Program-made: the position numbers and the translations under genes
Assembly: GCA_039096225.1 (NCBI GenBank)
Contig: JBBPEB010000004.1
Span: 467,501 to 525,000, forward strand
Reading direction: 5' to 3'
From: Blastocystis sp. Blastoise
Taxonomy: Eukaryota; Sar; Bigyra; Opalinata; Blastocystidae
Length of the DNA stretch: 57,500 nt
Notes under the pieces: generated by a model
Seen by the model: the letters and a program-made list of their open reading frames with translations, nothing else
What the model was told of the DNA's origin: nothing
The model's database searches: none
In this document: one piece after another, positions 48,094 through 51,000 of the stretch
Numbering within the stretch: the stretch's first letter is position 1
Layout of the letters: every line of letters begins with the position of its first letter

Positions 48094-51000
48094 ATGGGTG
48101 CTTGTATGTCTGTTTCTGATCAAGGTCATGAAGCTACGTTAGCTGTGAATGATCGTCAGTCCAATGTAACTAGTGGAGAATTAGCTTGCTTAGCAAATCA
48201 ACAAAATACAATGTTCAATAAGACCAGTTTGTCTATCAGTTGTAAAAACTTGATTAAAATGGATACATTTAGTGATAGTGATCCGTTTGTGGTTGCATAT
48301 CAAGATGTTAGTGGACAATGGAGTGAAATTGGAAGAACAGAAGCTATTATTGATAATAATAATCCTGTATTTGTTCGTCATATTGACCTTTTATATTATT
48401 TTGAAACAATTCAAAAACTGAAATTTCGTGTATTTGATGTGGATACCAGCAATACAGATACATCTCATGTATATATATAGTTTACTCGAATGTATTTTAT
48501 AATAATTGATGCTTTTGTTGCTATTATTGTTATTCATTGATATTATTTATATGTTATACTTATTAATCTTATTATTATTCTTATATTTATTCTTATTTTT
48601 AGCTCAAATTAGAAGATCAAGACTTTCTTGGGGAGGCTGAATGTACTTTAGCAGAAATTGTTAATTCTATAAATGGAAAACAAATAAAATTAACCGGATT
48701 AGGATCGAAGAGTCAAGGTGTAATTAGAGTATATATTATTATACTTATTATATTTATTATTATTATTATTATTATTATTTTAATAATAATAATAATAATA
48801 TATATATATAGATTGAATCAGAGGAACTTGAAGAAGAGAGTGGACGCGTCACTCTTAATCTAAATATGGAAGGTATATATAATATATAATAGTTTTTTAT
48901 ATATTAATTATTATTATATATATAGCTTTAGTAGGTAAAAGAAGTAATTTAGAACCTTTTTATATGTTAAAAAATATCTTTTACTAATTAATTATCATTT
49001 TTATTGTTAATTAAATATATATATTTCTTAATACAATGTACAATCTAAAGAGAATTCTACTGTTCTTATATATAAGAGTGAAGTTCAACATAAGACTTCG
49101 TCTCCTCGATTTACTCCTGTTACTATAGATACATTCACATTATGTAATAACGATATGGTATATATTTTATATATATATATATATATATATATATATATAT
49201 ATATATATATATATATATATATATATATATATATATATATATATATATTATTATTATTATTATTATTATTATTATTATTTTAAACATTAGTCAAATTAAT
49301 GTTTTTTATTTTTTAATATTATATACTATTATATACTATTATATACTATTATATACTATTATATACTATTATATACTATACTATTATATAGAATTTACCG
49401 ATTACTTTAGAAGTATACGACTGGACCCGCGGGGGAAAACATAAATTCATCGGTGAAGCTCAATTCAATATAAATGATATAATGAGAGATAAAACAAGTA
49501 TTATAATAAAGAATCCTGAAGATAATAAAACTACCCCTAGAGGAACGGTATATATAGATCAATGCCAATATCAACCTACTCCTTCCTTCCTCAAATATAT
49601 ACAAAATGGACTCGAACTTAATTTCATGGTATAGTATTATTATATATATCATTATTATTATATTTGTTATATTTATTATATTGATTTTATTGATTATTAT
49701 TATTATTTTTTAAAGCTATATATATATTATAAATTACCTTATAATTATATATAATAATTAGGTATCTATTGATTTTACTGGTTCTAACGGAGACCCCAGA
49801 AGTGCGTCATCGCTTCATTATATATCACGTGATGGACAGCTGAATAGGTATATATATATATATATATATATTGTTATTATTATCCTTGACTTTTTATTAT
49901 TTTATTTTTATTTCATTCTTTTATTATATTTATTACTAATTAATATCTATATATATAGTTATGAAAAGGCTATTCTATCTGTTGGTATATATATATAATA
50001 ATAATATATACTTATCTATATTATATAGGTAATGTATTAGAGTTTTACGATAAGGATAAGATGTTCCCGGTCTTTGGATTTGGCGGGACTCCAGCGAATG
50101 GCCAGGGAAGAGTGTCCCACTGTTTCCCTCTTAATGGAAATATGTCTAATCCAGATGTATATATATATATATATATATATATATATAATGATTTATTATT
50201 ATGTGATTTAATTATTATTTATGATATATATAAAACATATATATATAAATTGTATAGATACTATAATATACTGTATATATAAATAAAATTGATAATTTAT
50301 ATGTATATATAAATATAGGTATATGGTATTAATGGTATTTTAGATATATATAAGAGAAGTATAAAGACAACCGGTCTCTCTGGACCAACTCTCTTTGAAC
50401 CAACTATTCTGAAGGCTATAGAGTATATATATATATAATATATATATAATATATATAAACTTGCTTTTATAAGGATATACTATTATAGATTATTTATATT
50501 AATTATTCATAATAAAGAATCTACTTATATATATATAGATATTGTGAAGAATGTAAACACTCTCAAAATAAGTATATGGTTCTTCTTATTATCACTGATG
50601 GAGAGATTCACGATATGGAGAAAACTATAAGAGCTATTGTAGAAATATCCTTATATATATATATATTGATTATTATAATTATTATATTATACTTATTTTA
50701 TATTTTTATTTTTATACTTATTGTTATTCTCTTATTATATCTTCTTATTTCCTTAATATTCCCACGGGTCTACTCTTCCTCTTTCTATTATTATCGTTGG
50801 CGTCGGACACGCTGATTTCAACTCTATGGAGGTATATATATAATATTAATAATAATAGTTATATATATATATATATATAGGTATTAGATGGTGACGATGA
50901 GAGACTTTCTTATAACGGTGTGAAGGCTGAAAGAGAAATCGGTATATATATAATAATAATAATAATAATAATAATAATAAACTATATATATATATCGTTC

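What the first reader, a model, noticed from the sequence alone, without database searches (positions are those of the whole stretch)
50645..50765. AT-AC (U12-type) intron in the copine vWA domain
Seen: the intron begins ATATCCTTA and ends TTCCTTAATATTCCCAC; no GT donor or AG acceptor can restore the frame. Known: U12 AT-AC introns have ATATCCTT at the 5' end, a TTCCTTAAC branch and a short distance to AC. The spliced protein RAIVE-GSTLPLSIIIVG follows the copine pattern residue for residue. Inference: this AT-rich protist keeps a working minor spliceosome, lost in many protist lineages.
Basis: partly seen in the sequence, partly recalled or inferred. Interest (0 to 1): 0.9.

Follow-up and report, generated by a model that had tools for sequence, protein, structure and literature searches.

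The report
Rare AT-AC intron, complete minor spliceosome
An AT-rich eukaryote carries a rare second kind of intron (starting AT, ending AC) in a copine gene, and its genome holds roughly two dozen likely others plus the RNAs of the separate machine that removes them.

Summary
Confirmed. Window 50645-50765 (121 nt) is a U12-type AT-AC intron in a copine gene. Its removal gives a protein that aligns without a gap at the junction to Arabidopsis BONZAI1; retention shifts the frame into a stop; no AG starts between 50642 and 50829. The genome (33.3 Mb, 34 contigs, organism unnamed) holds U6atac and U11 above Rfam's cut-offs, U12 below its cut-off (46.8 bits, E 6e-7) and a weaker U4atac (29.7 bits), which pairs 13 bp and 8 bp with this genome's own U6atac. 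Two CENATAC exons are present. Strict motif searches gave 29 AT-type candidates (this intron included); 25 have AC ending 6-12 nt past the branch motif (background 23%), a few perhaps by chance. Five spliced genes, copine included, align ungapped across the junction with solved proteins. Two features are unusual. No convincing GT-AG minor intron was found. And the only U6atac found reads GCC instead of the family's AAG at nt 12-14, in the stretch that in mammals pairs with the 5' splice site, while the splice sites still read ATATCCTT. Splicing itself was not observed; the organism was not identified.

The parts
50539..50644 (+). copine exon upstream of the intron (vWA domain, ...TIRAIVE)
50645..50765 (+). 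U12-type AT-AC intron, 121 nt, phase 0
   Evidence: (found again as L026)
50645..50652 (+). 5' splice site ATATCCTT
50749..50757 (+). U12-type branch-site motif TTCCTTAAT
50764..50765 (+). AC acceptor, ending 8 nt past the branch motif
   Evidence: L026
50766..50831 (+). copine exon downstream of the intron (GSTLPLSIIIVGVGHADFNSME)
49392..51311 (+). C-terminal part of the copine gene: 9 exons and 8 gaps between them (6 GT-AG introns, this AT-AC intron, one odd 56-nt gap at 50941-50996); the gene's part upstream of 49392 was not modelled

Best explanation
50645-50765 is an AT-AC intron removed by the minor (U12-dependent) spliceosome. U11 pairs with ATATCCTTT and U12 with the branch motif TTCCTTAAT; U4atac delivers U6atac, which takes over at the 5' splice site; the AC 8 nt past the branch motif is used as acceptor. 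The intron is one of roughly two dozen of its kind found in this genome. Shown: the motifs, the exact junctions in several genes, the snRNA genes, snRNA pairing potential and two CENATAC exons. Inferred: expression of the snRNAs, assembly and actual splicing.
For: Exact junction and frame. U6atac, U11, U12 and U4atac genes (alignments 24, 39), each with TTCTAATC 56-63 nt upstream of the model start, U6 with it at -94. U4atac/U6atac stem II 13 bp and stem I 8 bp; 5' splice site with own U11 7 pairs, branch motif with own U12 7 pairs. CENATAC N- and C-terminal exons 2 kb apart on one strand. 25 of 29 strict AT-type hits have AC ending 6-12 nt past the branch motif, background 234 of 1011. Junction-spanning Pfam matches in 6 of 10 spliced peptides sent. 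Ungapped at the junction in solved-protein alignments: copine, SNF2, DNA polymerase A, VPS35, L15.
Against: No RNA data. U12 and U4atac score below Rfam's cut-offs. U6atac departs from consensus in the stretch that should pair with the 5' splice site. Four of 29 strict hits lack AC in the expected place (L011, L028, L030, L032). The reversed-pattern controls gave 3 and 7 hits against 13 and 18, and 23% of chance hits would have AC in place, so a few of the 25 may be chance. With a 9-39 nt gap there is little excess: 11 against 8. 3 of 10 spliced peptides gave no informative family.
Confidence: 0.95

Rival explanations
1. An AT-AC intron removed by the major (U2) spliceosome, as known for rare AT-AC introns with otherwise U2-like signals (recalled from general knowledge).
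For: AT-AC ends alone do not prove U12 dependence.
Against: Donor and branch motif are full U12 type; the genome has the minor snRNAs; the six GT-AG introns of the modelled part of this gene start GTATAG or GTATAT.
Confidence: 0.02
2. A GT-AG splice (GT at 50639 to AG at 50830-50831, or skipping to the next exon) is the real event and the AT-AC pair is coincidence.
For: It keeps the reading frame (72 coding nt removed, from coordinates).
Against: It deletes 24 residues that align to BONZAI1, and the same AT-AC arrangement recurs in 24 other strict hits.
Confidence: 0.02
3. Assembly error that inserted or altered the stretch.
For: The next-but-one gap of this gene (50941-50996) has no AG end, which could reflect an assembly slip.
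Against: An error would not create both U12 motifs at an exact codon junction, nor the other AT-AC introns.
Confidence: 0.01

Closest known systems
AT-AC minor introns and minor spliceosome of Blastocystis (PMC5608401, PMC10639083; passages seen)
   Same: All four minor snRNAs; minor introns mostly AT-AC (196 of 253 in the later survey); 49% in phase 0 there, 4 of the 8 protein-supported introns here.
   Different: Here no convincing GT-AG minor intron was found; the 25 strict introns are 71-127 nt (the searches set the range) against a mean just under 42 bp there; U6atac has a changed box. Blastocystis's own U6atac was not compared.
Human minor spliceosome, P120 intron system (PMC4980772; passages seen)
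   Same: U11 and U12 pairing with 5' splice site and branch motif; U4atac/U6atac pairing.
   Different: There U6atac GG14/15 matches CC5/6 of the 5' splice site (suppressor mutants); here nt 12-14 are G, C, C and only nt 15 is still G.
Physarum polycephalum minor introns (PMC10639083, PMC2846911; passages seen)
   Same: A non-animal, non-plant genome rich in minor introns.
   Different: Physarum has both AT-AC and GT-AG minor introns and the highest known density.

Membership tests
U12-type (minor) intron | 5' splice site RTATCCTT | tested here: met
   ATATCCTT at 50645
U12-type (minor) intron | Branch motif TTCCTTRAY close to the 3' end | tested here: met
   TTCCTTAAT 50749-50757, AC ends 8 nt later
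U12-type (minor) intron | AC (or AG) end at an exact codon junction | tested here: met
   ends CCCAC; ungapped alignment across the junction
U12-type (minor) intron | Spliced in vivo by the minor spliceosome | not testable with these tools
   no RNA data held
Minor spliceosome | U6atac snRNA gene | tested here: met
   63.8 bits, cut-off 33 (46 of 946 candidates scored)
Minor spliceosome | U11 snRNA gene | tested here: met
   62.9 bits, cut-off 39
Minor spliceosome | U12 snRNA gene | tested here: met
   46.8 bits, below cut-off 53, E 6e-7; accepted for GUAAGGAA and the shared upstream element
Minor spliceosome | U4atac snRNA gene | tested here: met
   29.7 bits, below cut-off 53, E 0.045, and 11 of 14 control genomes also ring below cut-off; accepted because it pairs 13 + 8 bp with own U6atac and shares the upstream element
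Minor spliceosome | Minor-specific proteins: CENATAC | tested here: met
   two exons over cut-off, E 2.9e-9 and 2.6e-6, 0 of 14 controls
Minor spliceosome | Minor-specific proteins: U11-48K | tested here: inconclusive
   4 CHHC finger hits, 3 over cut-off; best (L079) has a TRM13-like layout (recalled); L081 (E 0.0037) possible 48K; one control genome also over cut-off
Minor spliceosome | 65K, 59K, 35K, 31K, 25K, 20K proteins | not tested
Minor spliceosome | Expected rather than defining: U6atac complementary to the 5' splice site through AAGGA (nt 12-16) | tested here: not met
   own U6atac reads GCCGA there. Best duplex within nt 5-20: 4 pairs, -2.0 kcal/mol, in a shifted register; Rfam consensus 6 pairs, -6.4. 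Allowing nt 1-24 gives 5 pairs, -4.7, probably through the AAGG at nt 20-23
Copine | Copine-type vWA domain | tested here: met
   phmmer to BONZAI1, query residues 3-304 on chain residues 217-523, E 3e-72
Copine | Two N-terminal C2 domains | not tested
   the gene upstream of 49392 was not modelled or scanned

The most novel reading that the evidence does not exclude
A minor spliceosome narrowed to AT-AC introns, in which U6atac has lost most of its usual pairing with the 5' splice site. The 5' splice site stays ATATCCTT because U11 still reads it. The changed U6atac stretch (UUGAGCCGA) has instead become complementary to the changed 5' end of this organism's U12 (UCGGCCUCAA, the first U lying one base before the model start): 9 pairs with one bulge, -11.7 kcal/mol, against -4.0 for consensus-like sequences. 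This would be a rewired U12-U6atac contact, and one that competes with the known helix I, which uses the same U12 end.
Probability: 0.25. Interest if true: 0.78.

Novelty: new member of a known kind. Interest (0 to 1): 0.55.

Why it matters
Minor introns have been lost many times among eukaryotes, and in most species with them the majority are GT-AG (PMC10639083, passages). A compact genome whose detectable minor introns are all AT-AC, with CENATAC present, would be a natural test of what the AT-AC subtype needs. If the U6atac change is real and expressed, it offers a natural exception to the U6atac/5' splice site pairing shown by suppressor experiments in mammalian cells.

Tried and rejected
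Identity of the organism: not resolved. A bacterial-type L15 suggests organelle ribosomes; nothing finer is claimed.

GT-AG minor introns: searched strictly (0 hits, control 1; 2 of 18 hits, near-identical copies of one repeat without AC or AG in the expected place) and with a looser branch motif for 40-70 nt (4 hits, control 7; looked at). None is a convincing GT-AG minor intron; L076 and L077 remain odd. All these searches demand an exact RTATCCTT, so degenerate donors would be missed.

Short gaps (9-39 nt): 11 hits, control 8; mostly chance, but L041 (DNA polymerase A) is real. These 11 are not in the 25 of 29.

Prior report of a U12 intron in copine: one library search returned one ageing review, seen in the listing only. 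Whether other eukaryotes have a minor intron at this copine position could not be tested.

Natural U6atac variation in print: searches (listings) and passages of PMC4980772, PMC2846911, PMC10639083 and PMC5608401; in these I saw no report of a U6atac lacking the AAGG box, but the figures are not held and most subscription papers are missing.

U12/U6atac complementarity: weak as statistics (233 of 5000 shuffles of the U6atac 5' end reach it; 22 of 5000 when only positions differing from consensus are randomised), chosen after seeing the sequences, and without the extra first U it is -10.1.

Full report
Observation. The window lies at G000:C13:467501-525000 of a 33.3 Mb, 34-contig genome; GC is 19-32% in 2.5-kb steps across the window. 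Two copine exons (50539-50644 and 50766-50831) flank a 121-nt stretch that begins ATATCCTTA and ends TTCCTTAATATTCCCAC. Removing exactly 50645-50765 joins ...TIRAIVE to GSTLPLSIIIVGVG..., which aligns without a gap there to Arabidopsis BONZAI1. Keeping it shifts the frame and meets a stop. No AG starts between 50642 and 50829. A GT-AG alternative (50639 to 50831) would keep the frame but delete 24 aligned residues.

Chance. Each motif alone is expected several times in this window. Genome-wide, ATATCCTT followed 40-70 nt later by TTCCTTRAY gives 13 hits against 3 for the reversed pattern; RTATCCTT with 71-101 nt gives 18 against 7; with 9-39 nt, 11 against 8. together hold 29 AT-type and 2 GT-type hits. 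Of the 29, 25 have AC ending 6-12 nt past the branch motif; the background at other TTAAY sites in these loci is 234 of 1011, giving a binomial P near 1e-12. The four without are L011, L028, L030 and L032. The copine intron is one of the 25 (L026). A few of the 25 may still be chance.

Independent junctions. I sent spliced peptides of 10 of the 42 hits to Pfam, choosing those that looked coding. Seven matched a family: SNF2, amino-acid transporter twice, DNA polymerase A, MFS (30.7 bits, below its cut-off of 33.4), VPS35, and L15, whose Pfam stretch lies downstream of the junction only. Six of the seven matches span the junction; three peptides (L024, L008, L017) gave nothing informative. Solved proteins align without a gap at the junction for SNF2, DNA polymerase A, VPS35 and L15. 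With copine that makes 8 introns with protein support across the junction; by the frames used, four are phase 0 (copine, SNF2, polymerase, L15), three phase 1 and one phase 2.

Machinery. U6atac: C21:544821-544937, 63.8 bits, cut-off 33. U11: C4:1684165-1684293, 62.9 bits, cut-off 39. U12: C24:844725-844868, 46.8 bits, cut-off 53, E 6e-7. U4atac: C8:151033-151167, 29.7 bits, cut-off 53, E 0.045. Prokaryote control genomes also ring in these searches, none over cut-off. The four, and U6, carry TTCTAATC upstream, at -56 to -63 from the model start in the four and -94 in U6. The U4atac and U6atac sequences can pair in 13 contiguous bp (stem II) and 8 bp (stem I), which supports both as true partners. 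CENATAC has two exons, reading MSQKSFDYCQCCK... and ...WLPNFGSVWEHGSRYEGR.... The U11-48K finger search is inconclusive.

What is unusual. First, the subtype. The searches fixed the donor as RTATCCTT and the branch as TTCCTTRAY; within that freedom the 25 introns are all AT-type, the branch is TTCCTTAAT in 24 and TTCCTTAAC in 1, and length is 71-127 nt. No convincing GT-AG minor intron was found. Survey passages give about 26% AT-AC in human and 77% (196 of 253) in Blastocystis (PMC10639083). Degenerate GT-AG minor introns would be missed here. Second, U6atac. The Rfam alignment shows GAGCCGAGAGA where the family has GAAAGGAGAGA, without an indel. In mammalian cells U6atac GG14/15 matches CC5/6 of the donor, as suppressor mutants show (PMC4980772, passages). 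Here nt 14 is C. In the usual register only U+4/A16 and C+5/G15 remain, with a possible U+8/G12 wobble (read from the sequence). The best duplex within nt 5-20 has 4 pairs (-2.0 kcal/mol, shifted register) against 6 pairs (-6.4) for the consensus; allowing nt 1-24 gives 5 pairs (-4.7), probably through the AAGG at nt 20-23 that the family consensus also has; own U11 keeps 7 pairs (-5.8). The core AGAGAAGRTTAGCA occurs exactly twice in the genome, in U6atac and in U6. The same search listed 21 hits with one mismatch (23 hits in all, control 37); I printed flanks of 5 of the 21, none U6atac-like. No second, ordinary U6atac was found. Third, the changed U6atac stretch can pair with the changed U12 5' end (-11.7 kcal/mol), more strongly than the tested helix I stretch (-4.8); it would compete with helix I, and the controls make it a lead only.

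Mechanism. The standard minor-spliceosome pathway explains the intron: U11 and U12 recognise donor and branch motif, U4atac/U6atac.U5 joins, U6atac replaces U11. Each step after the sequence match is inferred. How U6atac holds the donor here is open: the remaining pairs of the usual register, the AAGG further downstream, or proteins.

Verdict. The intron is a new member of a known kind. The apparent AT-AC-only set and the U6atac change are what would interest a specialist, and both need RNA evidence.

Noticed in passing
window 50941-50996: A 56-nt gap between copine exons (REI / VQFVP) with no AG end; with a GT start it would end in CG. ATCG occurs on both sides. Assembly slip or a non-canonical intron.
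   Followed up: partly
L001, L002, L003, L006, L020 (56-94 nt upstream of each snRNA model start): All five snRNA genes examined share TTCTAATC, in context AACTTCTAATC or TACTTCTAATC, a likely snRNA promoter element.
   Followed up: partly
L001 1501-1617 (- strand): U6atac nt 12-14 read GCC instead of the family's AAG, in the stretch that pairs with the 5' splice site in mammals.
   Followed up: partly
L077 and L076: GTATCCTT stretches with a CCTTAAT branch-like motif between plausible exons but no convincing AG or AC end; possible minor introns with unusual ends.
   Followed up: partly
G000:C21:544821-551586: U6atac and U6 lie about 6.6 kb apart on the same strand.
   Followed up: no
window 56056-56652 (- strand): ORF matching aspartyl protease families (PF09668, E 5e-24).
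   Followed up: no
G000:C13:542955-543337 (L080, L082), about 18 kb past the window end: Two CHHC zinc-finger matches about 250 nt apart, one over cut-off and one below.
   Followed up: no
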